In this document: one piece after another, positions 4,769 to 41,214 of the stretch | How positions within the stretch are numbered: position 1 is the stretch's first letter | Layout: every line of letters starts with the position of its first letter | Origin: a virus | Length of the DNA: 41,491 nucleotides | Direction: 5' to 3' (one strand) | IMG/VR virus record: IMGVR_UViG_3300009012_000004 | Span: 1-41,491 of that record | Notes under the pieces: model-generated | What the model saw: the letters and a program-made list of their open reading frames with translations, nothing else | What the model was told of the DNA's origin: nothing | Database searches by the model: none | Position numbers and translations under genes: made by a program

Positions 4769-5671
4769 TTAAACCCGCTCCCCGATGAATTCCAATGCCA
4801 GCGGCAGGGTGATGACGTTTTCCGGTGCGGCGCGGCTGATCGCGAAATACTCCAATCCTTCGCTCTCGGCTTTCGGATCATTGTAATTCGAGCGCACCTT
4901 TTCCGGCGAGTTGCCCATCTCGAGCGCCACCTGCGTGTAATTTTTGGTCACCGCCAGCCGATAACTTCCAAAACTGTGTCGATTCGCATTGTCCTTCCGC
5001 GGCAAGCCTGTGCGCGCCCGAATTCGGTTCATTTCTCTGGAGTAAGCATTCTCGGCCGTCTTGAATTTGCCGGGATAGAGTGGTCCAATTTTGGAACAGC
5101 GCTCGAGCCACGTAAGCAGGTTTGGCTGGATCGGCACGAGGCGATCTACTTTGCTTTTTTTTGCAATCTTGCGCTGGACCGCGATGACGCCGAGCCGCCA
5201 CTTAAAGGCCGACCAATCCAGCCGGAGGATTTCGCTGGTGCGCAGGCCGGCAAAAAGGCCGATGGCCACGCAGGGAAGCCAGCACGGGCAAACCGCTTCC
5301 AAAAGCAGGCGCGCCTCGCGCGGCGTCCAGGTTGCGATTTCATGACCCGGCCGAATTTGTGGAATTCGCTCCGCTACCGAACGCCGTAGCTCATCGAGAA
5401 TGCCGTGCTTCCTCGCGTAGCGGAAGAGTTGAACAATCGATCCGCGAACATTATCGCGTCGGCGCGGGCCAACGTTTAGGGCGCGCAGATAAAGCGCGAG
5501 ATCTTGATAGCAAACTTTCCGAATATCAGGGAAATCCGCAGCGAACGGGCGAAGCGTCTGCCTGAGACCGTTGATGTGTCGCGGGCTGCGGCGCAGGTCT
5601 TTCAATTCTTCCAGCATGTCTTTCAAAATTTCCTTGGTGCCGGGCACCTTTTTCCAAAACCCCAGCCCCAT
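4769..5671 (-). CDS. int: Tyrosine recombinase (phage integrase)
   Basis: The 300-residue protein catalyses site-specific integration and excision of the phage. Residues 1-105 are a SAM-like core-binding domain; the catalytic domain follows. Visible active-site residues are Arg144 (AGLRTSEI), Lys174, Arg231 and the likely nucleophile Tyr263 (RSNYND). The histidine of the usual HxxR box is Asn228 and the later His/Trp position is Asn254 (GNSPEKV), a variant I associate with integrases of Verrucomicrobia and Planctomycetes. Its gene is first in the leftward operon and about 250 bases from a tRNA-like attP core on the opposite side of the divergent promoter region. It ends in GERV, encoded by the junction module. 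Confidence 0.93.
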   Translation of the reverse strand: MGLGFWKKVPGTKEILKDMLEELKDLRRSPRHINGLRQTLRPFAADFPDIRKVCYQDLALYLRALNVGPRRRDNVRGSIVQLFRYARKHGILDELRRSVAERIPQIRPGHEIATWTPREARLLLEAVCPCWLPCVAIGLFAGLRTSEILRLDWSAFKWRLGVIAVQRKIAKKSKVDRLVPIQPNLLTWLERCSKIGPLYPGKFKTAENAYSREMNRIRARTGLPRKDNANRHSFGSYRLAVTKNYTQVALEMGNSPEKVRSNYNDPKAESEGLEYFAISRAAPENVITLPLALEFIGERV

Positions 5672-10035: not shown

Positions 10036-10737
10036 ATGAAAAATATAACTTCCAGCACTGACATTTGGGCGCTGGGAGTGCAGAAAAGGCCAAAATATTT
10101 CGCCAATAGCTGGGAAAATCTGGCGAAGCTGATTTCCGAGCTGATTGAGATTTCGATCACTCCGCGCGCGCTGCAAAATTGGCGGAATGATCTGCGATAT
10201 AAGTCTCATTGGCCGAGGCCGAAATCGGGACGGCATGATGCGAGGAAATGGATCGCATTTATTCTGCGTTTCGGGCTCAAAAGGGCGGATGAAGTGGTCG
10301 ATCCGAGCGAAATTCCGGAAGAAAGGCGGACGATTCGGGATTGGAAAGATCATCGCGAGAAACTGCTCTGCACCCAGCTCGAGCGCGCAATCTTACGCGA
10401 CGATCGCATCCTTCTCGTTGCAACCGAGATTGAAATTGCGATTGGCCAGCTTATCGCTGGCGTTTCCGTTGCGCTGGATCATTTTGCGCCGAGCGCGGCG
10501 CGTTTCGTGGTCGGGCTGCGCGATATTCACGATGTTCAAGCCAAACTGCAAAGCGAGATCGATGCGGTAAAACAGCGGATCAATGCGGCGCATTATCTCG
10601 ATGAATGCGAAGAGGCTGCGAAACCATATTTGCAGCGGATCGGGCGATTGCTTTTGGCGGATATTCGCGGCATTCGATCACAAAAGGCTGTGACAGCCAC
10701 GCGCAAGCGTGGAACTAAAGCTGCCGGAAAAGAATAA
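10036..10737 (+). CDS. terS: Terminase small subunit (Nu1-like)
   Basis: The protein lies directly upstream of the large terminase and overlaps it. The N-terminal part (ISELIEISITPRALQNWRND) is a helix-turn-helix that would recognise the packaging site. Then comes a linker and long amphipathic helices (CTQLERAILRDDRILLVATE, and further on FVVGLRDIHDVQAKLQ) for oligomerisation, as in lambda Nu1. The basic tail (TATRKRGTKAAGKE) may contact DNA. The 117-base spacer upstream has a GCCCGGGC palindrome near 9990 but no obvious promoter. The final codons contain a TGACA box and hairpin that set the start of the large subunit. Confidence 0.7.
   Translation: MKNITSSTDIWALGVQKRPKYFANSWENLAKLISELIEISITPRALQNWRNDLRYKSHWPRPKSGRHDARKWIAFILRFGLKRADEVVDPSEIPEERRTIRDWKDHREKLLCTQLERAILRDDRILLVATEIEIAIGQLIAGVSVALDHFAPSAARFVVGLRDIHDVQAKLQSEIDAVKQRINAAHYLDECEEAAKPYLQRIGRLLLADIRGIRSQKAVTATRKRGTKAAGKE
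10691..10712 (+). promoter_or_regulatory. TGACA box with hairpin over terL start
   Basis: TGACA (10691-10695) is followed by CCACGC (10697-10702), loop GCAA, and GCGTGG (10707-10712). The GTG start of terL (10709) lies inside the right arm, 13 bases after the box. The module sits within the coding end of terS. Confidence 0.6.
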
Positions 10738-12718
10738 TTTCCTTAATGCCAGCGAATGGTTGCGCGGAATTGTGGGCGCAACGCTGCGGGCGCGGCCAAT
10801 CCGAAAGATTTGGGAATGGCTTGATGATGGCAACGTAACCATCCCGATCGGGATTGGATCACCGAATCCTGGGCCGCTTAAAACCGACCGTTTCCCGGTT
10901 TATCGCGGGTTTTACGACCTGTTTCAGAAACCGCAGGTTCACTTTTTCACCTTTGTTTCGAGCGTCCGGACCGGGAAAACGCTATTTTCCATTTGCTGCG
11001 TGCTGTGGTGGATCGCGGAACGTTGCGGCGGGCCAATTCTCTGGCTCGACCCGACTCGCAAAACCGCGATCAACTTCTCGCGGACCGAGCTAGATCCGTT
11101 TATTCGCGATTGTCCTAGCGCTTGGGCGAAAGCAATCGTCTCAAAAACGACATGGACTGCGCTGGAAAAGTTCTTTCGCGGCTGTTTCCTACGCTTGATC
11201 GGCTCTGGCGCCGAAGCCGACCTGCACGGGTTCCAAGCTGAGCTCGTCGTCTTAAATGAGAGCGTGCGGCTGCGCGCTTCAATCGACAAAGATGCGACCA
11301 GCGCTGATAAAGCGATCGCACGCAGCGCGCAATTCGAGCACACCCGCAAAATTCTGCGCAATTCCACGCCGGAAGACGAGTACGACGATATCTGGAGCAA
11401 TTTCGAACTCGGGAGCCAGCATTATGCCTATCTCCCATGCCCGCACTGCCAAGAATTTCAGCGCCTCACGATGTGGAGCGAGGAAAAGGAAGTGCCTTTT
11501 GATGAAAAGGGATCGCCATTGTCACTCGGGCAAACCCGGACCGAAAAAACGGGCGAAATCCATTTTGATCAATTCGCCATTTACGAAGGGCGCGAGACCG
11601 AACCCGGCAAAACCGAAAAAGTAAAAATCGGCTATGACATTCCAGGGATTGAGCAGGGTGCGACCTATCAATGCGCGCATTGCGCGAAACAAATCGAGCG
11701 GGTCGATCTCGGCGGGATGCTGGCTCGTTATCAGTTGCGCGCGCACAACGCCAAAGCGCCGCACGATCACGTCAGCGCGCATCTCTGGGCGGCTTATTCG
11801 CCATTCCAGAGCTGGGGCGCGATCGCCAAGGAATTTCTCCTGGCCAAAGGCAATCCCGCCCGGATGCGGAAGTTTTACAACCTCACCCTCGGGCTTCCCT
11901 TCAAACGTTATGCCGCCAGCGTCAAGGAAGACGATCTCGATCGCGCCGCGAAACGTTGCCCGCGGCGCTATGCCCGCGGGACGCTCCCATTGAAACCCGA
12001 ATTTCTGACGATGTGCGTGGACGTCGGCGGAATGCACTCGGGGAATTTCTGGTGGTCGATCCGGGCCTGGGGAATTTTGTGGGATCATCCGGAGTTGCCG
12101 ACTTGGAACGCGTTGATTGATTGGGGGCCGGCCGTGAGTTGGGCGCAGATCGAGGAAATGGCCGGCTTGGTGCCGTTGCCGGCGGCGAAGCGAGGCGAGG
12201 AAGATGAGCGCTTCAACGAATATACTTGGACCGATCCGAGGTCCGGTGAATCGGCACGCTTCCGCGTCACCGCCGGGCTGATCGATTCGGGCTTCGAAGC
12301 CAAAGAAGAAAAGAACGTTTACGAATTCTGTCTCCGGCATGATGCCGTTTTTTCGCCCTCAAAAGGCGGCGGGCAAAATCATCTGCGCGGCAACGTCATG
12401 CGGGTAACGCCAATTTACGATGAACGCCTCGAGCTGGTCTGGTATTGGGATGATTGGTTCAAGAGCGCGCTCTACTATCACGCGATTAAGGAAGGCAAAA
12501 AGCTCTGGTTTCTGCCGACCAACATTGATGAAGATTACCGGACGCATCTGACGATCGAGCATACCATCGAGCGGGACGGTAAACTGGAATGGGAAGGCGA
12601 CGGCGCCCACCTAGCCGATACCGAAAAAGAACATGAAGTCTTGCGCGATACCATCGAAGACAAGCTGGACGAAATCCGTGAAGCGCATCGCGAGAAAGAA
12701 AAGGAATTGGAAGAATAA
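10709..12718 (+). CDS. terL: Terminase large subunit, GpA family
   Basis: The 669-residue motor and nuclease packages DNA into proheads. The ATPase domain has a Walker A variant SSVRTGKT (84-91) and, at the Walker B position, LVVLNESV (179-186), where the usual Asp-Glu is Asn-Glu. A Cys4 zinc site typical of the GpA family is visible (CPHC near 245 and CAHC about 80 residues later). The nuclease half follows, with acidic residues in MCVDVGG and GLIDSGF. Length and order match lambda gpA-type terminases. The start is GTG 10709, overlapping terS by 29 bases, inside a hairpin. The gene is followed by two strong hairpins. Confidence 0.92.
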   Translation: MELKLPEKNNFLNASEWLRGIVGATLRARPIRKIWEWLDDGNVTIPIGIGSPNPGPLKTDRFPVYRGFYDLFQKPQVHFFTFVSSVRTGKTLFSICCVLWWIAERCGGPILWLDPTRKTAINFSRTELDPFIRDCPSAWAKAIVSKTTWTALEKFFRGCFLRLIGSGAEADLHGFQAELVVLNESVRLRASIDKDATSADKAIARSAQFEHTRKILRNSTPEDEYDDIWSNFELGSQHYAYLPCPHCQEFQRLTMWSEEKEVPFDEKGSPLSLGQTRTEKTGEIHFDQFAIYEGRETEPGKTEKVKIGYDIPGIEQGATYQCAHCAKQIERVDLGGMLARYQLRAHNAKAPHDHVSAHLWAAYSPFQSWGAIAKEFLLAKGNPARMRKFYNLTLGLPFKRYAASVKEDDLDRAAKRCPRRYARGTLPLKPEFLTMCVDVGGMHSGNFWWSIRAWGILWDHPELPTWNALIDWGPAVSWAQIEEMAGLVPLPAAKRGEEDERFNEYTWTDPRSGESARFRVTAGLIDSGFEAKEEKNVYEFCLRHDAVFSPSKGGGQNHLRGNVMRVTPIYDERLELVWYWDDWFKSALYYHAIKEGKKLWFLPTNIDEDYRTHLTIEHTIERDGKLEWEGDGAHLADTEKEHEVLRDTIEDKLDEIREAHREKEKELEE

Positions 12719-19015: not shown

Positions 19016-20767
19016 TTACGGCTGGACTTCGTAGGCACCCATATCAACACGACCGCCCACGACTCTGGGATTGCCAAGAAAATCCGTCTCGCCAATCCCA
19101 AGAACAAAACCGGGATCGCCCGCGTTCTTGGCAGGAGAGATAGATTGAAGGCTTAAATCGGGCGGGCTTGCGGCAGCGTTGGTAAACTTCGGGTCGGCAA
19201 TAATCTTATTTGCATCCGGCCCAGAACCGTCTCCGAAATATAGATTATAGTTCATGGTTCCAACAGGCCAGCCCAGCGTGTTGATTTCATTGGTCGCGTT
19301 GTTCGCAACAATATTGTTCTTCCATACCACGCTCGCGCTGGTATATGGTCGGACGTAAATCCCGTAGAGGTTGCCGTAGGCCGTGTTGTTTAAGACGCTA
19401 ATGTTGTAAACACTTGAGCCATCCGTATCGCTATACCAAGTCCCGACTTCGATTCCGGCATGGACGTTGGAATAGGCCACGTTATCGCGGACTGTGATGT
19501 GGTGGGCGGCTGGCTGCCCTGGCTCAGCCAGAACAGCGAATCCGATGCCAGAATTGCGGACTAAGTTTCGCTCAATCGTGGAGGTATTCCCGCCATCGAC
19601 ATATATGGTGTTCGACCCGCCGTTGCCATACCAGGTGCTTCCATCTCGCTTTACGCTGACGTATTCGAGAAGATTCCCTCGAATAGTAGCGTCATGCGCG
19701 CCGCCGTGGAGGTCGATGGCGATCCCGTCAGCATCGTGGAAGTAGTTACTTTCTACGATGGTATTGGCGCAGGTGGTCGAATCCATCGTTAGCACTTCAC
19801 TCTGGCAAGTTTCAATATCTCCCATCTCGTTGCCGCGAATTGTGATAGCGTTGCTGCCCCATATTCGAATATGCAAGAGGGCGGAAGTGCCATCCTGAAC
19901 TCCGTGGATGTTTTTGTTGTGAAGAAACCTATTGTTGAGAAGCTGGACATCGTTGCTGCCCCCGTCGATCCTAACGCCCTGCTTGAACGAGCCGTTGCAG
20001 GTGTAGTTCTGGAAGGTTAATCCTTGGATTATAACGTAACTCTTGTTGCTGATGTTCAGGAATGGTGTGCTGTCGTTCGTGACCGTTCCGAGGTAGGCGT
20101 AATCAATAATAACCTGGTCGCCCGTGCAGGTGGTATAGCCATTGGCGGCAATGGAAGCCCCGCAGTTGGCTCCTGTGTAGCCGAGCGGCTGGAAGGTGAT
20201 GTAATTTCCCGCCGTTCCCGACACATTCAGGGCCAAGCGTTCATGATAAGTTCCCGCTTTAATGTTCACCGCGGAACCCACAGTGGCAGCATTCATCGAT
20301 TTCTGGATCGTCCGCCAAGGCGATAATTCAGAGCCAGGATTGGCGTCGTTGCCGTTGATCGGATCGACATAATAAGAAGTCGTCGGAGGCGGCGTTGGAG
20401 TCGGCGTAGGGGTTGGCGTAGGGGTTGGCGTCGGCCCCGGCGTCGTGACACTGACAACGTTGGACGGTGCTGAAAGGCCAGTTTGGTTATACGCTTTGAT
20501 CCTGTAGTTGTAGCTTGTGTTCGGAGCTACTGTCGTATCGCTAGCGGTCGTAACATTCGCACCAACGGTCGCTATGGTCGTATATGTTCCGCTAATTAAA
20601 CGTTGCAGCCTAAATTGCGTCTCATTGTTGGAGTTGTCCTGCCAAGCAAAATCGACGTGCGTCGCTGCAATCGCGATTGTGTGAAGGTTCGACGGGGCAG
20701 CAGGTACAACGGCATGGCTATGGCTGGCCGCTAGGATCGTCAGAATAAAAGAAGCGAGTCGGTGCAT
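19016..20767 (-). CDS. Secreted FN3 and beta-helix protein on the opposite strand, 583 aa
   Basis: Residues 1-19 are a signal peptide (FILTILAASHSHA). A fibronectin type III domain follows (about 22-109, with PSNLHTI, TSYNYRIKAYN and SAPSNVVSVTT). Then come a PTPTP linker (111-127), a DUF1565-like start (YYVDPINGNDANPG) and a right-handed beta-helix of about 400 residues. The C-terminus NPRVVGGRVDMGAYEVQP is typical of such polysaccharide-active or adhesion proteins in environmental bacteria. It is the only leftward gene in the late region, so it may be a moron expressed on its own. A TTGACT box (20789-20784) lies 16 bases before its ATG, mirror-imaged to that of the rightward neighbour. Confidence 0.8.
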   Translation of the reverse strand: MHRLASFILTILAASHSHAVVPAAPSNLHTIAIAATHVDFAWQDNSNNETQFRLQRLISGTYTTIATVGANVTTASDTTVAPNTSYNYRIKAYNQTGLSAPSNVVSVTTPGPTPTPTPTPTPTPTPPPTTSYYVDPINGNDANPGSELSPWRTIQKSMNAATVGSAVNIKAGTYHERLALNVSGTAGNYITFQPLGYTGANCGASIAANGYTTCTGDQVIIDYAYLGTVTNDSTPFLNISNKSYVIIQGLTFQNYTCNGSFKQGVRIDGGSNDVQLLNNRFLHNKNIHGVQDGTSALLHIRIWGSNAITIRGNEMGDIETCQSEVLTMDSTTCANTIVESNYFHDADGIAIDLHGGAHDATIRGNLLEYVSVKRDGSTWYGNGGSNTIYVDGGNTSTIERNLVRNSGIGFAVLAEPGQPAAHHITVRDNVAYSNVHAGIEVGTWYSDTDGSSVYNISVLNNTAYGNLYGIYVRPYTSASVVWKNNIVANNATNEINTLGWPVGTMNYNLYFGDGSGPDANKIIADPKFTNAAASPPDLSLQSISPAKNAGDPGFVLGIGETDFLGNPRVVGGRVDMGAYEVQP

Positions 20768-20783
20768 AATCGACCCGCAGCGA

Positions 20784-20817
20784 AGTCAAAGGCAGCTTTG
20801 ACAGCCGCCGAGTGGCG
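20784..20817. promoter_or_regulatory. Back-to-back TTGAC boxes between divergent genes
   Basis: Arms GTCAAAG (20785-20791) and CTTTGAC (20796-20802, loop GCAG between) place a TTGACT box on the minus strand (20789-20784) and a TTGACA box on the plus strand (20798-20803). Each is 16 bases from the start codon of its gene (20767 and 20820). On the plus side CGCC, loop GAGT, GGCG (20806-20817) forms the usual hairpin next to the ATG. Confidence 0.6.
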
Positions 20818-20819
20818 AG

Positions 20820-21128
20820 ATGGCACTCGGAAACACCCAAAGCGGGCGCAGCAATTTATCCGCCTTCACCAAGGCGCTCGTCTCTTATGCCGAAGCGATC
20901 GGTGACGCCGATGCTTTGGAAACTGAGCGCGATGCGCTCTTTGATAAGCTTACCAGTGGCGCGGATGGCAAATCGATCATCGCATCCACGATCAACGGCA
21001 AATATTTCGGCTACCAAATCACCCTCACCCTTGAGGAAAAATTTCAGTGTTTCGTTAATGCGGTCAAAATCTTCAACGGCGCCGCCGGGGATTCTCCCGT
21101 CACCTTCATCGATTTCTCTTGGATGTAG
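20820..21128 (+). CDS. Small head protein candidate, 102 aa
   Basis: A 102-residue protein directly before portal. It has an N-terminal helical part (NLSAFTKALVSYAEAIGDAD) and a C-terminal beta part (YFGYQITLTLEEKFQCFVNA). A gpW-like head-to-tail joining protein often sits here, and the length and helix-then-strand order are compatible, but no diagnostic motif is seen. The start ATG follows a TTGACA hairpin module at the standard distance. Confidence 0.55.
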   Translation: MALGNTQSGRSNLSAFTKALVSYAEAIGDADALETERDALFDKLTSGADGKSIIASTINGKYFGYQITLTLEEKFQCFVNAVKIFNGAAGDSPVTFIDFSWM

Positions 21129-21132
21129 GACT

Positions 21133-22653
21133 ATGGCGCTCTCCGATTTCCTTACCTGGCCCTGGCGCAGCGGCGCGGCCTTCGGCGAAACGACCGAGCC
21201 GGGGATCGATCGGACGAATGTCCGTTTCATCGTCCCGCAGGATTCACGGCTCTACATCAAACGCTGGACCCGAAGGCTATTAGTTGAGAAAGCGGAATGG
21301 GCCTATCAGAATTTCGGGATTGTAAAGGAAGGCGTGGCCGGCATTGCCCGGCATACCATCGGCAAAGGTATTTCCCTACAGCTCGATAGCGATAATTCGA
21401 AACAGAACGAGGCGGCCGAACAAGATTTTGAAACCTACGCGCTCACGCCGGAACGCTGCGACCTGGCCGGGCGCCGGAATTTTTATGAAACGCAAACCAG
21501 CGCGATCGAACAGCGCCTCGTCCGCGGTGAATTCTTTGCCGCACTGACCAATAACCCGGAGTTCGCCGAACCATGCTTCCATCTTTATGACAGTGAAGAG
21601 ATTGGAACTCCGGCGGATCGGGAAGGCGACCTGAATATCATCGATGGAGTGGAGCTGAACGAAAATGCGCGCGCCACCGGATATTATATTAAAGCAAACA
21701 GCTTCCGGATTGATCGGGCGGGAATGCTGCACTGGTACAAGCCGCATTCGATCAATCAGCCGCGCGGGATCAGCGATTTAGCCCAAGGGGTAAATCCGCT
21801 TGTCGATATCCACGAGCTCAAACGGCTGGCTACGCGCAGCGCCAAGGCGCAGCAATTCCTAGCGCTCGCGCTCAAAGGCATCACGAAAAAACGCGCCAAA
21901 GGCGCCCTCGGCGCCATTCGGAACGCAGGAAACAATGACGGCACGCCAGACGCAGACAGCGCGCAATTGGAGCGGCTCACCGGCGCGGCCGGTGGCGGCA
22001 TCATTTACCTCGATGATACCGATGGCGACGCCAAGCTGATCACGGCCAATTCGCCCTCGCCCCTAGTCGAAGGATTCATCACCGATTTGCTGATGCGCGA
22101 TGTCTGCGCCGGCTGGGGAGTTCCATCCGAATTTTTCTGGAACATGGCGCGCATGAATGGCGGGAATACCCGTTTCATCCTGGCGCGGGCCGATCTCTTT
22201 TTCCAAATCCTCGGCGAACGTTTGATCGATCGCTTCTGCACCCCGATCGCCTTCCGTTATTTGAGCCATCGGATCCAGATCGGGAAACTGCCGCCATTTC
22301 AAGATCCGAATTGGGCGCAAAAGATGAGTTGGCAGATGCCGCCGCGGGTGACGGTGGATAACGGACGGGAAAACAAAATTTTAATCGATCTGCTCGCAAA
22401 CGGGCTGATCACGATGCGGGAATACTGCAACGCGCGCGGGCTCAATTACAAGGCGGTGATGCGCCAGTGGGTGCGCGAACCGATCGAGTTTTTGCGCATT
22501 GCTGCGGAGGAAGGCGCCCCGCCCGAAATGCTGGATAAATGGAAAGCCACGCCACCGCTTTGGCGCGCGCCGCTCCCCGGCCAGGCACCTCTCGATCAAA
22601 CATCGGTCACAGCGCTTGATCAGAACGGAGACCCGATAAAAGCAGCCGCCTAG
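21133..22653 (+). CDS. Phage portal protein, lambda gpB type
   Basis: The portal dodecamer forms the DNA entry vertex of the capsid. The 506-residue protein has the lambda-family features: an N-terminal helical wing (RRLLVEKAEWAYQNFGIVKE), GVAGIARHTIGKG, and MLHWYKPHSINQPRGISDL followed by a helix with KRLATRSAKAQQFLALALKG. The crown and stem region follows, with WGVPSEFFWNMARMNGGN. I chose the ATG at 21133, four bases after the upstream stop; the frame stays open further upstream but that stretch is the antisense-like shadow of the 102-residue gene. It starts the head module. Confidence 0.88.
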   Translation: MALSDFLTWPWRSGAAFGETTEPGIDRTNVRFIVPQDSRLYIKRWTRRLLVEKAEWAYQNFGIVKEGVAGIARHTIGKGISLQLDSDNSKQNEAAEQDFETYALTPERCDLAGRRNFYETQTSAIEQRLVRGEFFAALTNNPEFAEPCFHLYDSEEIGTPADREGDLNIIDGVELNENARATGYYIKANSFRIDRAGMLHWYKPHSINQPRGISDLAQGVNPLVDIHELKRLATRSAKAQQFLALALKGITKKRAKGALGAIRNAGNNDGTPDADSAQLERLTGAAGGGIIYLDDTDGDAKLITANSPSPLVEGFITDLLMRDVCAGWGVPSEFFWNMARMNGGNTRFILARADLFFQILGERLIDRFCTPIAFRYLSHRIQIGKLPPFQDPNWAQKMSWQMPPRVTVDNGRENKILIDLLANGLITMREYCNARGLNYKAVMRQWVREPIEFLRIAAEEGAPPEMLDKWKATPPLWRAPLPGQAPLDQTSVTALDQNGDPIKAAA

Positions 22654-23603: not shown

Positions 23604-24701
23604 GTGCGCCCATCCTGCTGGTATGAATTCCGAGCCTCAGCCTCGCAAGCGAATGAAACCGAACTTTTCATCTATAACGAGATCGGGTTTTTTGGAATTT
23701 CCGCGGCTGCGTTTATCACCGATTTACAAAACGTTCCGAAGAGTCATCGGATCTCGCTTCACATCCACTCGCCCGGCGGCGACGTCTTCGACGGGCAAGC
23801 AATCTTCACCGCGCTAAGCGCGCATCCCGGCGGCGTCACCACGCAAATCGACGGCCTGGCCGCGAGTATGGCCTCCCTCATCGCCCTGGCTGGCGATCCA
23901 GTGCGGATGTCGGGCAACGGCATCTTTATGATTCACAACGTCACCGGCGGCGCGATCGGCGACGCCGAGGATCTGCGCAAGCAGGCGGACGTGATGGAAA
24001 AAGTTCAGGAAACCATCACCGCGGTTTACGTCGGCAAAACCGGCATGTCCCGCAGAGCCATCACCAAAATGATGGATGCCGAGACCTGGATGACGGCGAG
24101 CGACGCGCACGAGCTCGGCTTCATCGATGAAATCACTGGCGACATGAAGATGGCCGCCAAGTTCGATCTCTCCGGCTTCAACAAAGTGCCCGCCGCGTTG
24201 ACACCGCTGCTCGCGGCGATGTCCAAACCGACCATTGCAGAGCTGGAAGGAACGATTGCCGAACTCGAAGGCAAGGTTTCCACAGCCAACGAAACAATTT
24301 CAAAGCACGAAACCGAAGCAAAAGAGTTCGGTGAAATCACCGACAAAATGTTGACCGATTTAACGGCGAACCAGAACACGATCCTGAAGCTCGAGGCGGA
24401 AGCGAAAACTGCGGTTGAACTCAACGCCAAGCTCGATGCAGATCTAAAGTCCGAGCAGGAAAAGAGCGCCAAGCTCGAAGGCGAAGCGAAATCAGCCGAG
24501 GAACGCGCGCGGGAAATGGCAGCTCGCTCCGGCGTCACCCTCCCAGGAAAGAAAGTCGTCGTCACTTCGACCACTTCAAGCTCAGAGGATCTGATCGCTC
24601 AATTCGAAGCAATCGAAGACTCGTCCGAACGAACCGAATTTTACCGGAAAAACAAAGTAGCGATCAGGGCAGCAAATCTCGAACTCCATTCCCGCAAATA
24701 A
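23604..24701 (+). CDS. ClpP-like prohead protease with scaffold-like C-terminus, 365 aa
   Basis: Residues 20-190 are an S14 (ClpP-like) serine protease. The nucleophile is Ser88 in GLAASMAS, with His111 in MIHNVTGG and Asp175 in GFIDEITG; the HSPGGDVFDG loop is also typical. Residues about 205-310 form a long coiled coil (ELEGTIAELEGKVSTANETI and more) that probably acts as the scaffold for capsid assembly and is cut during maturation. This protease-scaffold fusion next to portal and capsid is common in lambda-like phages. The start is GTG 23604, 14 bases after a TTGACA box (23584-23589). Confidence 0.9.
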   Translation: MRPSCWYEFRASASQANETELFIYNEIGFFGISAAAFITDLQNVPKSHRISLHIHSPGGDVFDGQAIFTALSAHPGGVTTQIDGLAASMASLIALAGDPVRMSGNGIFMIHNVTGGAIGDAEDLRKQADVMEKVQETITAVYVGKTGMSRRAITKMMDAETWMTASDAHELGFIDEITGDMKMAAKFDLSGFNKVPAALTPLLAAMSKPTIAELEGTIAELEGKVSTANETISKHETEAKEFGEITDKMLTDLTANQNTILKLEAEAKTAVELNAKLDADLKSEQEKSAKLEGEAKSAEERAREMAARSGVTLPGKKVVVTSTTSSSEDLIAQFEAIEDSSERTEFYRKNKVAIRAANLELHSRK

Positions 24702-24737: not shown

Positions 24738-25619
24738 ATGGCCTCTTATACAAATTTAGATGACGAAATTTTCGCGCAAAGCGCGCTGCAAGGTTTCGTT
24801 GCCACTCTTCTCCCATTCTCCGCGTTCTCGCTCAACTTTTCACCAGAGCCGCTCACCCGCAAAGGCAATGACGTCCTCGTGCCTTTGATCGGATCACTGA
24901 CGGCTACCACTTTCTCGGCTTATAACATCTGCGGCGGCTCGGCCAGCGTCATCACCGTCTCGATCAACAAGCACAAGCATGTGCCGATCGGTCAGAGCGA
25001 TTTAACCGCCGCTTCCACAAGCCACGTTAATCTTGAATCCTTCGGGCTACAGGCGGGTGCGGCGCTTGGTCTTTTGGTTTTCCAAGATGTATTTTCGCTG
25101 GTTACCACCGGCAACTTTTCTCTCGCCACCTCAGTAAGCGTGGTCGATTTCGGCATCGCGCAAATCCGCGCCGGCCGTTTGCTGCTCTCGCAAAACAAGG
25201 TGCCGATGCTCGGTCGCGCCCTGGTTCTGGATGTGAGTCCGTTCGATAATTTGCTCGGCATCTCCAATTTCATTCAGGTAATGCAAGCCGGAACTAGTGA
25301 GGCGTTACGAGAAGGCCGGATTGGCCGCGCGCTTGGGTTAGATATTTACGAGTCGAACGCGCTTCCTGGCACCAATTCAGTCATGGGCCTGGTCGGACAT
25401 CCGTCCGCGATCGCGGTTGCCGCGCGCTATTTGCAGCCGCAAGATGGAAACCTTTACGCGGATGCTCGCCCGATCACCGATCCCGGCACCGGCATCACCC
25501 TTGGCTTCCGTCGTCACTACGACAACAATACCGGAACCGCCTATGTGAACCTCGAGTGTAACTACGGTTACTCGCTCGGGATCAGCAACGGCGCGCGCGT
25601 CATTAAGCGCAACGACTAA
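24738..25619 (+). CDS. Major capsid protein
   Basis: The 293-residue protein lies after the protease-scaffold, where the capsid gene is expected. Its sequence fits P22 coat-like HK97-fold proteins: KGNDVLVPLIGSLTATTF, HKHVPIGQSDLTA, and ALREGRIGRALGLDIYESN, which matches the conserved 'R-GRIGR--G-D-Y-SN-LP' segment. It forms the icosahedral shell. The start ATG 24738 lies 19 bases after TTGACA (24713-24718), here without a hairpin. Confidence 0.85.
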   Translation: MASYTNLDDEIFAQSALQGFVATLLPFSAFSLNFSPEPLTRKGNDVLVPLIGSLTATTFSAYNICGGSASVITVSINKHKHVPIGQSDLTAASTSHVNLESFGLQAGAALGLLVFQDVFSLVTTGNFSLATSVSVVDFGIAQIRAGRLLLSQNKVPMLGRALVLDVSPFDNLLGISNFIQVMQAGTSEALREGRIGRALGLDIYESNALPGTNSVMGLVGHPSAIAVAARYLQPQDGNLYADARPITDPGTGITLGFRRHYDNNTGTAYVNLECNYGYSLGISNGARVIKRND

Positions 25620-26092: not shown

Positions 26093-28495
26093 TTGAACTC
26101 ACGCAAAGGCGCAAAGCCGCAAATTTCTCTCTGCCTCATCGCGGGCAACGTCGAAGAATATATCGAGCGCTGTCTCAAATCCTTCGCGCTGATCGCCGAT
26201 GAAATCTGCATCGTGCGCGCAATCGGGAACCAGAAACCCGACGCCACGCTGGACATTGCCCATCAGCTCGCCAGCGATCTCAACATCCTGACTCGCACCG
26301 CCGATTACATTAACGCACCCGATCACGCCGATTGGAAACATCTCGATAATTTCGCAGCGGCGCGCCAGCAAAGTTTCGATATGGCGACCGGCAAATACAT
26401 TTTCTGGTGCGATACCGATGACGTCCTGCAAGCCGGCGCGGAGGTGGTGCGCGAGCTGGCCGAGAAAGCGGAATATGATTGCTACATTTTCCCGTATGAA
26501 ATTTTCGGGCAACACGTTTCCGTTCCGCGCGAGCGAATGGTGAAACATGGGAGTGGCCGCTGGACCCATCCCGTCCATGAGTTTTTTAAATTCAACGAAG
26601 AAGTGGACGGTTATAGGGATGATCGGGTCATCGTGCGGCATCAGCCAATGTTAGAGAAATCCGGCAGCGTTGAGCGCAACCTGCGCATCCTGCGCACCAT
26701 TCCAGATAAGGAAATGCCGCCGGGGCTGCGTTACCAGCTCCACTGCGAACTGGTCGGCGCAGGAAGGAAACATGAAGCTTTCGAAGCGGCCAAAAAAGCA
26801 TTGGAATCCGGCGGCCTGGGCAAACCCGAGACTTATCAACTGCTTATTCACCTGGCGACGTTTTCGAAAGATCCACGCACGACCGAGAGCTATCTAATAG
26901 CTGCCTATCAGGCCGATCCATGCCGGCGGGAAGCGCTCGGCCTTCTCGCCGGCCACATGATCGATTATGGGCAACCGACCAAAGCGCTCGCTTTCGCCCG
27001 GCAAATGCTCGCGACCGAGCCACCGGCTGAAAGCTGGAACGATCGCAAAAATGCTTATACCTGGTTAGGAGTCGAGATCATGCAGCAAGCGCTCCGCGCC
27101 AATAACCGTTTCGACGAAGCGGAAAAATTGCGAACTCAAATGCTGGCGCGCGCTACCACGCCCATTATTTCGCTCATTCATGCCAGCCGCGGGCGCCCGA
27201 AACGCGCCGCCATCGCCCGTAAACTTTGGTTCGATCTCGCGGAAAACCCGGAAGCGATCGAGCACATCTTTGTTTTGGATTCCGATGACGACGAATCAAT
27301 GGCGCTGCGCCGGATGCACCACATCACCATCGCCGCCGGCGGCGGCTGCGTCGCAGCTTGGAATATGGGCGCTGGTGTTTCCATCGGCAAAGTAATCATA
27401 CAAATGAGCGACGATTGGCTCCCGCCGCCAAGGTGGGACAAGCTCATTCTCGAGCGTTTCGCTCAAGAATCAGCAGAGATCAGAGATCAGAAGTCAGAGC
27501 TCAGTAAAAATCCCTCTGACCTCCGACCTCTGACCTCCGACCTCTATGCGCGTGCATTGCAAGAGCCAAAAGTACTCGCAATCTCCGATGGCCACCGAAC
27601 AGACAACCTCCTCTGCATGGCGATCATGACGCGCGCCTATTTCAATCAGGATTGGTTCATGTTCCATCCCGATTTTACCGGCGTTTATTCCGATAATTAT
27701 TTTACCGATGTCGCTTATGCCCGCGGCCAGGTCATCGAGGCGCGCGACCTTATTTTTAAACATGATCATCCCGCTTTCACCGCCGGCGCAGCCGATGAGA
27801 CTTATCTGCGACAGAACTCGCCGAAGCGCTATGTGGAAGGGCTCAAAGTTTACGAGCGGTTAAAAGAGCAGCGTGATTGGTCGCAAGTGCCAGGCTTCTT
27901 CAATTTCTGGCCGTTCTATGGCGAGATCGCAGTTTCGCTCAAAGACGGCGATACCGTGGCTGAGATAGGCGTCTGGCTAGGGCGCTCCATTATTTACCTG
28001 GCGCAAATGTGTCAGCGTTTGGGAAAGAAAGTGAAATTCATCGCGGTCGATTCTTTCAAAGGAGAATCCGGCCAGCCGGCGCATGCCGGAACCATTGCCG
28101 CGCACAGTGGCTCCATCCGGAAAGAATTCGAAGAAAATATCAAACGCTGCGGCGTAGCCGATATGATCGATATCCTGCAGGGCGATAGCGCGAAGGCCGC
28201 CGCAGCCGTTCAAGATGGATCGATCGCCTTCTGTTTCATCGATGCCGCGCACGATTACGAAAGCGTGAAGCGCGACATCAGCGCCTGGAAACCAAAGGTA
28301 AAACCCGGCGGCATTCTAGCCGGCCACGATATCCAATGGCCAGAAGTACGCCGCGCCGTCGAAGAACTTATCCCCGCCGCCAAGATGACGAGCGCGACCT
28401 GGTTCTGGAAGTCAGGCTTCCAGCCTGACTTGGCCGATGGGCTTCCAGCCCGTCAGACAACGCATGTTCCGCTGCAAGCCGAGCTGGCAACGTGA
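26093..28495 (+). CDS. Glycosyltransferase-TPR-glycosyltransferase-methyltransferase fusion, 800 aa
   Basis: Residues 10-190 are a GT2-type glycosyltransferase (ISLCLIAGNVEEYIERCLKS, with DTDD at 107-110 as the metal-binding DxD). Residues about 195-350 are TPR-like helices. Residues 357-590 look like a second GT-A domain (IISLIHASRGRPKRAAI, VLDSDDD at 394-400, QMSDDW at 437-442). Residues 605-760 are a class I methyltransferase (VAEIGVWLGRSIIYLAQ, FIAVDSFKGE, FCFIDAAHDYE, KPGGILAGHD) of the Methyltransf_24 type. Two repeat elements interrupt the frame: an inverted-repeat minisatellite at residues 461-485 and a palindrome at 772-787. The TTG start (26093) lies beside a third repeat. It probably builds or caps a surface glycan. 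The start is uncertain. Confidence 0.75.
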   Translation: MNSRKGAKPQISLCLIAGNVEEYIERCLKSFALIADEICIVRAIGNQKPDATLDIAHQLASDLNILTRTADYINAPDHADWKHLDNFAAARQQSFDMATGKYIFWCDTDDVLQAGAEVVRELAEKAEYDCYIFPYEIFGQHVSVPRERMVKHGSGRWTHPVHEFFKFNEEVDGYRDDRVIVRHQPMLEKSGSVERNLRILRTIPDKEMPPGLRYQLHCELVGAGRKHEAFEAAKKALESGGLGKPETYQLLIHLATFSKDPRTTESYLIAAYQADPCRREALGLLAGHMIDYGQPTKALAFARQMLATEPPAESWNDRKNAYTWLGVEIMQQALRANNRFDEAEKLRTQMLARATTPIISLIHASRGRPKRAAIARKLWFDLAENPEAIEHIFVLDSDDDESMALRRMHHITIAAGGGCVAAWNMGAGVSIGKVIIQMSDDWLPPPRWDKLILERFAQESAEIRDQKSELSKNPSDLRPLTSDLYARALQEPKVLAISDGHRTDNLLCMAIMTRAYFNQDWFMFHPDFTGVYSDNYFTDVAYARGQVIEARDLIFKHDHPAFTAGAADETYLRQNSPKRYVEGLKVYERLKEQRDWSQVPGFFNFWPFYGEIAVSLKDGDTVAEIGVWLGRSIIYLAQMCQRLGKKVKFIAVDSFKGESGQPAHAGTIAAHSGSIRKEFEENIKRCGVADMIDILQGDSAKAAAAVQDGSIAFCFIDAAHDYESVKRDISAWKPKVKPGGILAGHDIQWPEVRRAVEELIPAAKMTSATWFWKSGFQPDLADGLPARQTTHVPLQAELAT
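26100..26123. repeat. CGCAAAGG-type dispersed repeat, copy 1
   Basis: A 24-base sequence made of CGCAAAGG, CGCAAAGC and CGCAAA steps. Its exact reverse complement occurs at 38912-38935. It encodes the first residues (RKGAKPQ) of the 800-residue glycosyltransferase. I recognise this as a kind of repeat scattered in intergenic regions of several bacterial phyla, Verrucomicrobia among them. Confidence 0.75.
27474..27545. repeat. In-frame inverted-repeat minisatellite, copy 1
   Basis: The left side repeats CAGAGAT and similar heptamers; the right side repeats CTCTGACCTCCGAC. The two sides are complementary, so the RNA would form a long hairpin. It lies in frame within the second glycosyltransferase domain and adds about 25 residues (SAEIRDQKSELSKNPSDLRP and on). 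A second copy of the same design is at 31921-31997. Confidence 0.8.
28411..28451. repeat. GGCTTCCAGCC palindromic repeat, in frame
   Basis: GTCAGGCT, TCC, AGCCTGAC forms one palindrome and GGGCT, TCC, AGCCC a second directly after. Together they encode KSGFQPDLADGLPARQ near the C-terminus of the methyltransferase domain. This double palindrome looks like a dispersed host-type repeat that inserted without breaking the frame. Confidence 0.65.
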
Positions 28496-29103
28496 TTCTT
28501 TCCATTCTTACGCCCTCTGTCCCCTCGCGCCTCGAGCAGTTAAACGCTCTCCGCGCCATGCTGGCGTCGCAGATTGGCGATCAATTGGCGGTCGAGCATC
28601 TAATCCTGATCGATAACAAACGGCGCACCGTCGGCGAAAAACGCGATAACCTCTTGCGCATTGCCCTTGGGCGATATGTCGCCTTCGTCGATGATGATGA
28701 TTTCGTGAGCGAGGATTACATAAACGAGATTGTGGCGAGAACCTGGTCGAATGCGGATGTCATCACCTTTCGCCAGCTCGCTACTGTGAACGGTCAAACG
28801 GCCGAGATTCAATTCCGCCTCGGCAACGAAAACCAAAGCTTCCAGCCGGGCATGCTGGTGAAACGCAATGCCTGGCATATCTGCGCCTGGCGGCGCGAGC
28901 TCGCCCTTACCAGCCACTTTCCGGCATGGAATTACGGCGAAGATTGGGAGTTTGCCGCGCCCCTCTGCCGGATCGCTAAAACCGAGGAGCACATCCCGAA
29001 AGTGCTGCACTATTACAGGCACGACGCCAAGACCACCGAAGCGCCTTATCCTGGCACGTCGTTTCCAGCGGCCGATCAATTCCACGCTTTGACCGGCAAT
29101 TAA
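28492..29103 (+). CDS. Glycosyltransferase family 2, 203 aa
   Basis: A short GT2 enzyme: MILSILTPSVPSRLEQLNAL at the N-terminus is the first nucleotide-sugar binding strand-helix, VGEKRDNLLRIALGRYVAFV leads into the DxD-type metal site VDDDDF (residues about 64-69), and WNYGEDWEF (about 145) supplies the likely catalytic ED. The GTG start overlaps the stop of the 800-residue gene by four bases, so the pair is co-translated. It probably adds a sugar to the same glycan. A cytoplasmic location is likely, since there are no membrane segments. Confidence 0.8.
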   Translation: MILSILTPSVPSRLEQLNALRAMLASQIGDQLAVEHLILIDNKRRTVGEKRDNLLRIALGRYVAFVDDDDFVSEDYINEIVARTWSNADVITFRQLATVNGQTAEIQFRLGNENQSFQPGMLVKRNAWHICAWRRELALTSHFPAWNYGEDWEFAAPLCRIAKTEEHIPKVLHYYRHDAKTTEAPYPGTSFPAADQFHALTGN

Positions 29104-38227: not shown

Positions 38228-38246
38228 CAACACGCGCGCCAGCGTG
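38224..38246 (+). promoter_or_regulatory. TTGACA box with hairpin over the GTG start
   Basis: TTGACA (38224-38229) overlaps the upstream stop and is followed by CACGC (38231-38235), loop GCGCCA, GCGTG (38242-38246). The GTG start of the lipoprotein gene (38244) ends the right arm, 14 bases after the box. Confidence 0.6.
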
Positions 38247-38840
38247 CGCGCACGTCTGATTTTTTCTCTCCCTGTCCTCGCTCTCCTTTGCTCCTGCGCC
38301 GGACCGCGTATCGCGCCGCATTACTCCGCGCCCAGCGTCGCGCCGATCCGAAGTAAGATTGCGGATGCGCGCGCTTCTCTTGTTCGCGCCGCCGAGCACG
38401 CTGGCAAAACGAGATTGGCTATTCTCGCGCTAAAAGATTTCGGCCCGCGGCTGCCGACGGAAGCGGAGATATCTTTTTCTCAATCACTTTCCCAAGCGCT
38501 CAAGGAAAACGATGCGCTCACCCAAGAGCTCGAGATCACGCAAACCGCGCTCGCCGCCAGCGATAAAAACGCGCAATCGCTCCAAACCCGGGTCGAAACG
38601 CTGGCAAAAAACGCGAACACCGAGGCAACCGAGCGAAGCAAAGCGCAAGCGCACGACGCCGCGACCTCGCGCCGGTATCACACCGTAAAATTATATTTCT
38701 GCAGCGCTGCGGCCGCGCTCGCGCTTCTCCTCGCGTTTCAATTTCGCTGGCTCCTCGCATTGCTCGGTCCGTGGGGAACAATCGCCGGCCTGGCAGGTCT
38801 GCCAGCACTCACATTCGGCACCCTGTGGCTCTGGCTATGA
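38244..38840 (+). CDS. Lipoprotein with coiled coil and two C-terminal membrane spans, 198 aa
   Basis: The N-terminus has a lipoprotein signal (LIFSLPVLALLCSC, with lipobox LCSC). Helical coiled-coil residues about 40-145 follow (SLSQALKENDALTQELEITQ). The C-terminus holds two hydrophobic segments (LYFCSAAAALALLLAFQF and LLALLGPWGTIAGLAGLPAL). An outer-membrane lipid anchor plus inner-membrane spans across a periplasmic coiled coil is the architecture of a unimolecular spanin, though with two rather than one C-terminal spans. It lies among other lysis genes. The GTG start is set by the box. Confidence 0.6.
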   Translation: MRARLIFSLPVLALLCSCAGPRIAPHYSAPSVAPIRSKIADARASLVRAAEHAGKTRLAILALKDFGPRLPTEAEISFSQSLSQALKENDALTQELEITQTALAASDKNAQSLQTRVETLAKNANTEATERSKAQAHDAATSRRYHTVKLYFCSAAAALALLLAFQFRWLLALLGPWGTIAGLAGLPALTFGTLWLWL

Positions 38841-39663: not shown

Positions 39664-39686
39664 CAATGGGCGCGCCAGTGTGCGCC
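39660..39686 (+). promoter_or_regulatory. TTGACA box with hairpin over the GTG start
   Basis: TTGACA (39660-39665) is followed by GGCGC (39669-39673) and GCGCC (39682-39686). The GTG start (39680) overlaps the right arm, 14 bases after the box. The loop region GCCAGTGTGC is nearly the same as in the module at 38224. Confidence 0.6.
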
Positions 39687-40417
39687 GCGTTAATCTTTAT
39701 TACTGGAAACAACGCGCAAATTTCGGCGATCAACTCTCCGCGCTTCTCCTTAAAAAATTTACTGGGCTGCCTTCACGCTGGACGACACCTGGGGGAGCCG
39801 AGCTCGTTTTAGTCGGCTCGATTCTCGAGCATCTGCCCCCGGATTTTAGTGGGGCTATCGCCGGCGCTGGCAAATTGCATGAGGAATCTTTTTTAAGATT
39901 TCCGAATGCGAAAATATTTTCGGTGCGGGGCCGGCTCACGGCCGAGGCGTTGGGACTTGGGCGCGACATTACCATCGGCGACCCGGCGCTCCTGGCCAAT
40001 GAACTTATTCCCCTCGGCGACAAGAAATACGACTTAGGTCTTATACCGCACTGGTCGGACAAGAGCTTGGAACTCAATCCCGCCTTTACCAAATATCTTC
40101 CCCAAATTATCCAGGTCAGCGATGATCCGCTTTCGGTAATTGCCCAGATCGGGGCGTGCAAGAAAATCGTCTCTTCATCACTCCACGGAATTATCCTGGC
40201 GGACGCTTTTGGAATTCCCCGCCGGATTGAACTCGCGCCCAGCATGATCGCCCGGCCCACCCAAGAGGGCGGGCTCTTCAAATGGCGTGATTACGCTTCC
40301 TCGATTGGCCTGCCGTTTAAAATTGGCGTGACCCAGCAGGTGGATCGGAACCTGATTGCCGACAAGCAATCGGAAATCTTCGACGTCTTCGAGGCGCTAA
40401 GAAAATTTTTCTCGTGA
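39680..40417 (+). CDS. Polysaccharide pyruvyl transferase family protein, 245 aa
   Basis: This enzyme family adds pyruvate ketals to sugars of surface polysaccharides, using phosphoenolpyruvate. Family features are clear: NFGDQLSALLLKKF at the N-terminus, FSVRGRLTAEALG and IGDPALL in the middle, then DPLSVIAQIGACKKIVSSSL followed by HGIILADAFGIP, the conserved C-terminal signature. At 245 residues it is shorter than many members (300-400). It starts at GTG 39680 by the box rule and overlaps the following glycosyltransferase by four bases. Phages rarely carry this gene; envelope or virion glycan modification is the likely role. Confidence 0.8.
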   Translation: MRRVNLYYWKQRANFGDQLSALLLKKFTGLPSRWTTPGGAELVLVGSILEHLPPDFSGAIAGAGKLHEESFLRFPNAKIFSVRGRLTAEALGLGRDITIGDPALLANELIPLGDKKYDLGLIPHWSDKSLELNPAFTKYLPQIIQVSDDPLSVIAQIGACKKIVSSSLHGIILADAFGIPRRIELAPSMIARPTQEGGLFKWRDYASSIGLPFKIGVTQQVDRNLIADKQSEIFDVFEALRKFFS

Positions 40418-41214
40418 AGCCGCGCCCAAAAATTAGCCTTTTGATTCCCTTTTCTTCCAAGAATCGGGTACGCAAAAAGAGTTTTAACTGGCTGCTTAAA
40501 TATTGGGAATGCGAGCTGCCTGAAGCGGAAATTGTTGTCGGCCATTCCAACGGCAAGGTTTTTTGCAAAGGCCGTGCGCTCAACAAAGCTGCGGCCAAAG
40601 CGCGCGGCCAGGTGCTCGTTATTCTGGACGCCGACGCCTATCTGGAAGGGCGCGTGATCAAGTATTGCGCTGACCGGATCCTGGAAGAGCTGGAGAACCA
40701 TCTCTGGTACGTGCCTTATCGCCATTTGTATCGGCTGACCAAGAAAGTTTCCAAGGAAATTTTGCGGTCGGATCCCTGTGATCCCTTGCGCCTACCATCC
40801 CCCCCGCCGCCTAGGGTGATCGACTGCAAGCACAAAGACCACAGCGGGTATGGCCACAGGTTCGGCGCCATGATCACGATCATCCCGCGGCGCGCGCTTG
40901 ATGTCTTGGGCGGCTTTGATGAGCGCTTCAAAGGCTGGGGCGGCGAGGACATCGCGCTCCTGCGAGCGCTTGATACTTTATATGGGCGGCACAAAACCAC
41001 CGTGGGCGATGTCCTCCATCTTTGGCACCCATTTATCGGGGAGACCTATCAGACGCGGCGGTGGAAAGGCCAGGGCTACGGCAGGAATAATCGGCTCGCG
41101 GTTGAATATCACATGGCGACCGGCCACCCCACGAAAATGCGGGAGCTGGTAGCCAAAGGCCACCGCAAAGCCAAGCGGAAGATCGATCCGCGCAACCCGC
41201 TGATCATCATCTAA
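40414..41214 (+). CDS. Glycosyltransferase (GT2 / galactosyltransferase type), 266 aa
   Basis: The N-terminus (ISLLIPFSSKNRVRKKSFNW) is a GT-A nucleotide-sugar fold. LVILDADAYLEG supplies the DxD motif. GGFDERFKGWGGEDIALL is the Glyco_transf_7C-type acceptor and catalytic motif found in galactosyltransferases and chondroitin polymerases. A basic tail follows (KGHRKAKRKIDPRNP). The GTG start overlaps the pyruvyl transferase stop, so both act together. No membrane segment is present, so it is cytoplasmic. Confidence 0.8.
   Translation: MKPRPKISLLIPFSSKNRVRKKSFNWLLKYWECELPEAEIVVGHSNGKVFCKGRALNKAAAKARGQVLVILDADAYLEGRVIKYCADRILEELENHLWYVPYRHLYRLTKKVSKEILRSDPCDPLRLPSPPPPRVIDCKHKDHSGYGHRFGAMITIIPRRALDVLGGFDERFKGWGGEDIALLRALDTLYGRHKTTVGDVLHLWHPFIGETYQTRRWKGQGYGRNNRLAVEYHMATGHPTKMRELVAKGHRKAKRKIDPRNPLIII

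What the first reader, a model, noticed from the sequence alone, without database searches (positions are those of the whole stretch)
39680..41214. Phage-borne polysaccharide pyruvyl transferase coupled to a glycosyltransferase
The pyruvyl transferase signature is clear (SSSLHGIILADAFGIP) and its gene overlaps a GT with the GGFDERFKGWGGEDIALL motif. Negative pyruvate groups on surface sugars change receptor and S-layer binding in bacteria. With the block at 26093 this gives four sugar-modifying genes flanking the structural region, hinting at a superinfection-exclusion or virion-coating system.
Basis: partly seen in the sequence, partly recalled or inferred. Interest (0 to 1): 0.6.

Follow-up and report, generated by a model that had tools for sequence, protein, structure and literature searches.

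The report
Phage two-enzyme acidic sugar cassette
This phage carries two overlapping genes, predicted to add a sugar and then an acidic pyruvate group to it, and the same two-gene pair recurs in many unrelated phages, suggesting a widespread and apparently undescribed way for phages to put a negatively charged cap on their own coat or on the host surface.

Summary
39680-40417 encodes a PF04230 pyruvyl transferase (PPT) and 40414-41214 a GT-A glycosyltransferase (GT), overlapping by 4 nt. Residues shown by mutagenesis or proposed in CsaB/Pvg1p are present (D17, R83, H169, K201); one PEP-binding arginine is Ser167, as in the whole clade. Foldseek's best solved match to the PPT model is Pvg1p.

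The larger result is that the pair is a conserved phage cassette. Of the 80 closest IMG/VR PPT loci, 79 have this GT downstream (the 80th is cut by its contig end), always PPT>GT on one strand; four distinct lineages fuse them into one ORF. No other neighbour is shared. The 67 distinct PPTs form one clade (SH-aLRT 96), separate from 48 bacterial PPTs, none with a comparable GT beside it. Carriers span 41-463 kb records and 30-70% GC. PPT and GT divergence covary (Mantel r 0.78).

Most likely the GT adds a galactose-type sugar and the PPT ketal-pyruvylates it. The acceptor is not shown. Virion glycosylation is slightly favoured over a host glycan, because related phage GTs and the window's second glyco-block sit beside the major capsid gene. 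DNA is disfavoured. The lysogen/exclusion reading is possible but not specifically supported.

The parts
39680..40417 (+). Polysaccharide (ketal) pyruvyl transferase, 245 aa, GT-B fold model
   Evidence: PF04230 46.6 bits; AlphaFold pLDDT 95.9, pTM 0.92; Foldseek top hit Pvg1p 5ax7, E 2.4e-4, prob 1.00
39728..39730 (+). PPT D17 codon (NFGD motif), equivalent by motif position to Pvg1p catalytic D106
   Evidence: Invariant in 66/66 phage-clade rows with the column and 48/48 bacterial; D106 from PMC4872226
39926..39928 (+). PPT R83 codon, equivalent to CsaB R148 / Pvg1p R217 (PEP binding)
   Evidence: Invariant 67/67 and 48/48; R148K/Q inactive, PMC10435577
40175..40186 (+). PPT S166-S167-L168-H169; H169 equals CsaB H308 / Pvg1p H339, S167 stands where CsaB R306 / Pvg1p R337 is
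   Evidence: SSLH 67/67 in the phage clade; bacterial rows A or S at 167, H 48/48
40280..40282 (+). PPT K201 codon (FKWRDY), equivalent to CsaB K328 / Pvg1p K361
   Evidence: 65/65 phage rows with the column, 48/48 bacterial
40414..41214 (+). GT-A glycosyltransferase, 266 aa, beta-1,4-galactosyltransferase/chondroitin-synthase-like, overlaps the PPT gene by 4 nt
   Evidence: PF10111, PF02709, PF00535, phrog_1721; model pLDDT 91.6; Foldseek/VIA hits to ppGalNAc-T, chondroitin polymerase, b4GalT1
40627..40635 (+). GT DxD motif D72-A73-D74
   Evidence: D72 and D74 invariant in 52 sequences
40909..40950 (+). GT GGFDERFKGWGGED motif (GT7-like WGGED)
   Evidence: W175, G176, D179 invariant in 52 sequences
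26093..28495 (+). Related context: 800-aa multi-domain GT2-TPR-GT-methyltransferase
   Evidence: PF00535, PF14559 TPR, PF13578 Methyltransf_24; phrog_13126, phrog_14945, phrog_2675
28492..29103 (+). Related context: second glycosyltransferase, overlaps the previous gene by 4 nt
   Evidence: PF00535, phrog_14775 E 4.9e-31
24738..25619 (+). Major head protein, upstream of the 26093 block
   Evidence: phrog_283 E 7.7e-21
4769..5671 (-). Tyrosine integrase: the phage is probably temperate
   Evidence: phrog_1 E 6.1e-17; PF00589 over cut-off in the genome search

Best explanation
A two-enzyme glycan-capping cassette of phages. The GT-A enzyme (40414-41214) transfers a galactose-type sugar, probably from host UDP-Gal, to an existing glycan. 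The PPT (39680-40417) then transfers pyruvate from host PEP onto that sugar as a cyclic ketal, leaving a carboxylate: an acidic, sialic-acid-like terminus. Both enzymes look soluble and their genes are translationally coupled. The most likely acceptor is a glycan on the phage's own virion proteins, in this phage perhaps begun by the 26093-29103 block beside the capsid gene; it would act as a charged shield or change adsorption. Shown: the families, conserved active-site positions, folds, and strict pairing including fusion. Inferred: the sugar, the reaction, the order of steps, and the acceptor. I put the chemistry at about 0.7 and the virion as acceptor, given that chemistry, at about 0.5; the confidence below is for the whole statement.
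For: Family and catalytic residues: PF04230 over cut-off; D17, R83, H169, K201 conserved and matching CsaB/Pvg1p residues (PMC10435577, PMC4872226); Pvg1p is the top Foldseek hit. GT: closest solved kin are b4Gal/GalNAc/chondroitin enzymes. Same pathway: 79 of 80 viral loci pair PPT>GT, 28 of 54 two-ORF pairs have an exact 4-nt NTGA overlap, and L122, L128, L133, L134 (four distinct lineages; L130 is near-identical to L128) fuse the two in one ORF. Distances covary, Mantel r 0.777 against a permutation maximum of 0.189. One carrier, L069, has a nucleotide-sugar epimerase directly upstream (closest solved kin UDP-glucose 4-epimerase). Virion target: the same GT family in Mycobacterium phage Minerva (gp19) lies in a GT/kinase/methyltransferase block between major capsid and head-tail connector, the slot that the window's 26093 block occupies; in L112 a major head protein gene, and in L061 a head protein gene and head-tail adaptor, lie directly upstream of the cassette. 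Only 6 of 42 carriers have an integrase, so the function is probably needed in productive infection.
Against: No biochemical data. Ser167 replaces the PEP-binding Arg of CsaB/Pvg1p, though bacterial relatives also lack it. Every characterised PPT that I know of acts on cell-surface or lipid-linked glycans, not virions. The cassette is not next to capsid genes in most carriers: in Tunturi_5 it lies among tRNA-ligase, ATP-grasp and replication genes, and in the window it is about 14 kb from the capsid gene. Neighbour tallies are mixed. The sugar donor cannot be read from sequence.
Confidence: 0.37

Rival explanations
1. Host-envelope modification: the pair decorates a lipid-linked or LPS/capsule precursor in the cytoplasm with pyruvylated galactose, masking phage receptors (superinfection exclusion) or altering the surface of lysogens.
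For: Characterised PPTs such as CsaB act on lipid-linked precursors (PMC10435577); host csaB is needed for infection by Bacillus phages AP50c and Thrax1-2, so pyruvylation can decide phage sensitivity (PMC9703825); Eggerthella lenta prophages carry a PPT-containing EPS operon (PMC8778435); the window phage has an integrase.
Against: Carriers span 30-70% GC, so presumably very different hosts with unlike surface polysaccharides; no GtrA flippase in 42 records; integrases in only 6 of 42; no other envelope-glycan gene travels with the pair.
Confidence: 0.33
2. DNA hypermodification: the GT glycosylates modified bases of phage DNA and the PPT adds a negative cap, protecting against restriction.
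For: Phage GTs are known to glucosylate DNA (general knowledge; discussed in PMC12619734). Both enzymes look soluble and many carriers are large phages.
Against: No thymidylate-synthase-family enzyme (which includes dCMP/dUMP hydroxymethylases) in 42 carrier records, including ones of 332-463 kb (control genomes ring). A TET/JBP search was also empty but uninformative, as nothing rang in the controls. One neighbouring gene matches a PHROG named thymidylate synthase without a PF00303 match in the records searched. The GT's fold kin act on sugars or proteins.
Confidence: 0.06
3. The PF04230 protein is not a pyruvyl transferase but another GT-B-fold transferase working in tandem with the GT-A enzyme, for example adding a second sugar.
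For: GT-B folds are shared with epimerases and GTs, which score as high as Pvg1p by VIA-align Z. The Arg of CsaB R306 is replaced by Ser. In L151 the PPT's place before the same GT is taken by a DXD sugar transferase, so the partner can be a second GT elsewhere.
Against: Curated PPT family score, conserved D/R/H/K set, and Pvg1p as the best Foldseek hit.
Confidence: 0.15

Closest known systems
CsaB (Paenibacillus alvei) and Pvg1p (S. pombe), PF04230 ketal-pyruvyl transferases
   Same: Family, GT-B fold, positions equivalent to D106 (Pvg1p), R148/R217, H308/H339 and K328/K361
   Different: Shorter (245 aa), Ser in place of R306/R337, phage-encoded, paired with a GT; acceptor unknown
Mycobacteriophage capsid-adjacent glycosyltransferase blocks (e.g. 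Minerva gp14-gp23)
   Same: Same PHROG-level GT family; GTs with a methyltransferase between major capsid and head-tail connector, as in the window's 26093-29103 block
   Different: No pyruvyl transferase annotated there; about 24% identity to the GT; the window's cassette is about 14 kb downstream of the capsid gene
Tunturiibacter phage Tunturi 5 gp300/gp301
   Same: Same cassette, same order, 42% identity each
   Different: 308-kb jumbo myovirus; gp300 was published as a 'galactosyl transferase' (PMC11924767) although it matches PF04230
Gtr serotype-conversion cassettes of temperate phages
   Same: Phage-borne sugar transfer that could change a surface glycan
   Different: No GtrA flippase in 42 carrier records; enzymes without obvious membrane segments; pyruvyl transfer
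PPT-containing EPS operon of Eggerthella lenta prophages (PMC8778435)
   Same: Prophage-borne gene with the pyruvyl transferase domain
   Different: Operon of up to six EPS genes with an epimerase; sequence not compared here

Membership tests
PF04230 polysaccharide pyruvyl transferase | Profile score over the curated cut-off | tested here: met
   46.6 bits against 25.3
PF04230 polysaccharide pyruvyl transferase | PEP/acceptor residues D106, R148/R217, H308/H339, K328/K361 | tested here: met
   D17, R83, H169, K201 by motif position (literature)
PF04230 polysaccharide pyruvyl transferase | Arg at CsaB R306 / Pvg1p R337 (a feature of these two enzymes, not of the whole family) | tested here: not met
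   Ser167, 67/67 in the clade; the 48 bacterial relatives have Ala or Ser too, so it does not define the family
PF04230 polysaccharide pyruvyl transferase | GT-B-like fold close to Pvg1p | tested here: met
   5ax7 top hit, E 2.4e-4, prob 1.00; VIA Z 9.9, rmsd 4.7, 198 residues, within 2 Z of other GT-B enzymes
PF04230 polysaccharide pyruvyl transferase | PEP-dependent ketal-pyruvyl transfer | not testable with these tools
   needs an enzyme assay
GT-A, b4Gal/chondroitin-type (PF02709/PF10111) | DxD metal motif and WGGED motif | tested here: met
   D72-A73-D74 and W175-G-G-E-D179; PF02709 26.0 over 23, PF10111 33.9 over 27.3
GT-A, b4Gal/chondroitin-type (PF02709/PF10111) | UDP-Gal donor | not testable with these tools
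   Donor not readable from sequence; only hint is an epimerase upstream in L069
Gtr-type serotype conversion cassette | GtrA flippase encoded by the phage | tested here: not met
   0 of 42 records; several records may be fragments
Phage virion glycosylation system | Genes beside capsid/connector genes | tested here: inconclusive
   True for L112 and L061 and for the window's 26093 block, not for most carriers or Tunturi_5
Phage virion glycosylation system | Glycan present on virion proteins | not testable with these tools
   needs mass spectrometry
T4-type DNA glycosylation | Phage-encoded nucleotide hydroxymethylase (thymidylate synthase family) | tested here: not met
   PF00303 in 0 of 42 carrier records

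The most novel reading that the evidence does not exclude
A mobile phage cassette, spread across phages of very different size and GC, builds a pyruvylated-galactose cap on virion glycans: a bacterial-virus counterpart of sialylation that gives the particle a negatively charged sugar coat. Pyruvylated virions are not described in the papers I could search.
Probability: 0.33. Interest if true: 0.8.

Novelty: new variant of a known kind. Interest (0 to 1): 0.6.

Why it matters
Phage glycosyltransferases are common but their products are mostly unknown. Here two enzymes are locked together in at least 67 lineages, sometimes as one protein, while nothing else around them is conserved, so the product is narrowly constrained: sugar plus pyruvate. 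That makes it testable in one cultured phage (Tunturi 5). If the cap is on the virion, it would be a new virion modification; if on the host, a new receptor-masking route. It also corrects an annotation, since gp300 of Tunturi 5 was called a galactosyl transferase.

Tried and rejected
Single-protein scans of viral contigs with the window PPT or GT found no relatives because the exact peptides are too specific; the alignment queries A1 and A2 found 286 and 70. Sequence searches of the PDB with the PPT, alone or as a profile, gave only chance hits; the fold search was needed. Two near relatives of the window phage by terminase (L202, L203, 72%) lack the PPT and share too little else to define an empty site. 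PF03237 rang in only 3 of 46 carriers, so terminase distance could not be tabulated. The TET/JBP search was uninformative because its controls did not ring. blastp of the window's second glyco-block against carriers' loci found nothing at 1e-6, so that block does not travel with the cassette. Absence of the cassette from bacteria is only suggestive: the genome scan's peptide pattern matches 15 of 67 phage-clade PPTs, although 288 genomes of one phylum also gave nothing above 142 bits, against 234-384 for the phage loci. VIA-align ranks other GT-B enzymes as high as Pvg1p, so fold alone does not show pyruvyl transfer.

Full report
What is there. The window is a 41,491-base IMG/VR virus record of a tailed phage: terminase large subunit 10709-12718, portal 20812-22653, head protease 23604-24701, major head protein 24738-25619, and a tyrosine integrase at 4769-5671 on the minus strand, so it is probably temperate. 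The finding's two genes are exactly where stated. The upstream gene (39680-40417) is a PF04230 pyruvyl transferase (46.6 bits, cut-off 25.3); the downstream gene (40414-41214) is a GT-A glycosyltransferase with PF10111, PF02709 and PF00535 over cut-off and phrog_1721 'galactosyl transferase'. They overlap by four bases, GTGA. The pair ends 277 bases before the record's end, so what follows is unknown.

Active site. In P. alvei CsaB, R148, H308 and K328 bind PEP (PMC10435577); in yeast Pvg1p, D106, R217 and R337 were proposed catalytic (PMC4872226). By motif position the phage protein has D17, R83, H169 and K201, invariant in the phage clade wherever the column is present and in 48 bacterial relatives. 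The Arg two residues before the His (R306/R337) is Ser167 throughout the phage clade; the bacterial relatives also have Ala or Ser there, so this marks a subfamily rather than a dead enzyme. These equivalences are from sequence motifs, not from a superposition. A 54-sequence AlphaFold model is confident (pLDDT 95.9, pTM 0.92) and its top Foldseek match among solved structures is Pvg1p (E 2.4e-4, prob 1.00); VIA-align puts Pvg1p at Z 9.9 among other GT-B enzymes. The GT model (pLDDT 91.6) matches polypeptide GalNAc-transferases, chondroitin and heparosan polymerases and beta-1,4-galactosyltransferase 1. Its DxD and WGGED motifs are conserved in 52 homologues.

The pair is a phage cassette. A profile scan of IMG/VR found 286 relatives of the PPT, of which the best 80 (40-63% identity) were kept. 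In 79 of 80 the same GT family lies directly downstream on the same strand, always PPT then GT; the remaining one (L129) is cut by the contig end. In L135 the GT is split in two ORFs. 28 of 54 two-ORF pairs have an in-frame start overlapping the PPT stop by exactly four bases. Four distinct lineages (L122, L128, L133, L134), forming one subclade, fuse PPT and GT into one 522-543 aa ORF. Including the window, Tunturi_5 and two found by the GT scan, there are 67 PPTs distinct at 90%, and no other neighbour is shared by more than 14 of them. The link holds both ways: viral GTs scoring over 260 bits against the GT profile have the PPT upstream, except L151, and those under 181 bits do not, with L181 (90 bits, paired) the exception and L150 cut by its contig end. 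In L151 a DXD sugar transferase takes the PPT's place. The 48 bacterial PPT loci score 56-158 bits against the phage profile (viral loci 234-384) and none has a comparable GT beside it (L039 has a weak, 33-bit match overlapping). The 67 phage PPTs form one clade (SH-aLRT 96, quick tree without bootstrap, two long branches). Selection bias applies: the 80 loci are those most like the window.

Age and spread. PPT and GT distance matrices covary (51 pairs, Mantel r 0.777, permutation maximum 0.189), and the cassette's GC follows its phage's GC (r 0.977, n 65) over a range of 30-70%. The window's nearest PPT relatives lie in phages of 30%, 37%, 43% and 65% GC. The cassette therefore moved between unlike phages and then stayed long enough to ameliorate. 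The one isolate with it in the phage collection is Tunturiibacter phage Tunturi 5, a 308-kb jumbo myovirus, whose gp300 and gp301 were published as two galactosyl transferases (PMC11924767); gp300 matches PF04230. I found no paper on phage pyruvyl transferase-GT cassettes; the nearest is a PPT-containing EPS operon in E. lenta prophages (PMC8778435). The library searched holds open-licence papers only.

What it acts on. Three acceptors were weighed. DNA: none of 42 carrier records, including those of 332-463 kb, has a thymidylate-synthase-family enzyme that could make hydroxymethylated bases, so this is unlikely. Host envelope: chemically the classic role of PPTs, and host csaB decides sensitivity to some Bacillus phages (PMC9703825); but no carrier of 42 has a GtrA flippase, only 6 of 42 have an integrase, and the GC range implies very different hosts. 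Virion: in mycobacteriophage Minerva the GT's relative gp19 lies in a block of GTs, a kinase and a methyltransferase between the major capsid gene and the head-tail connector. The window's second block, a GT2-TPR-GT-methyltransferase protein plus a GT at 26093-29103, sits in the same slot after its major head protein. In L112 a major head protein gene, and in L061 a head protein gene followed by a head-tail adaptor gene, are directly upstream of the cassette. Glycans on mycobacteriophage capsid and tail-tube proteins are reported (cited in PMC12619734). I therefore favour the virion slightly over the host envelope, but most carriers do not show this proximity and Tunturi 5 does not.

Verdict. 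The conserved PPT-GT cassette is the real finding. Its chemistry is likely (about 0.7), its acceptor open. I file it as a new variant of phage-borne glycan modification.

Noticed in passing
L093:9483-11477: The GT of this carrier has a ~348-aa insert in its catalytic motif (GGWDERF|insert|SGWGGED) that starts CVDDSTQILT and ends TGN|S, like an intein; the following gene carries a Pfam intein domain.
   Followed up: partly
L151:2482-4674: Same GT family, but fused behind a Gly_transf_sug (DXD) sugar transferase instead of the PPT: a partner swap.
   Followed up: partly
window 26093-28495: An 800-aa multi-domain protein: GT2, TPR, a second GT-like region and a Methyltransf_24 domain, just after the major head protein, in the slot where Omega-like mycobacteriophages have a GT/kinase/methyltransferase block.
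   Followed up: partly
L002:13882-14577: Tunturi 5 gp303, annotated 'DNA methyltransferase', matches the histidine phosphatase family PF00300.
   Followed up: no
window 38244-38840: Reads as a lipoprotein signal (LLCSC) with coiled coil and C-terminal hydrophobic stretches, as in unimolecular spanins; would imply a Gram-negative host. Judged by eye.
   Followed up: no
window 19016-20767: Lone minus-strand 583-aa gene within the plus-strand structural region, with fn3 and right-handed beta-helix domains: tailspike-like.
   Followed up: no
window 3021-3704: Minus-strand gene with a match to the C-terminal end of the N6/N4 DNA methylase profile, possibly a shortened methyltransferase.
   Followed up: no
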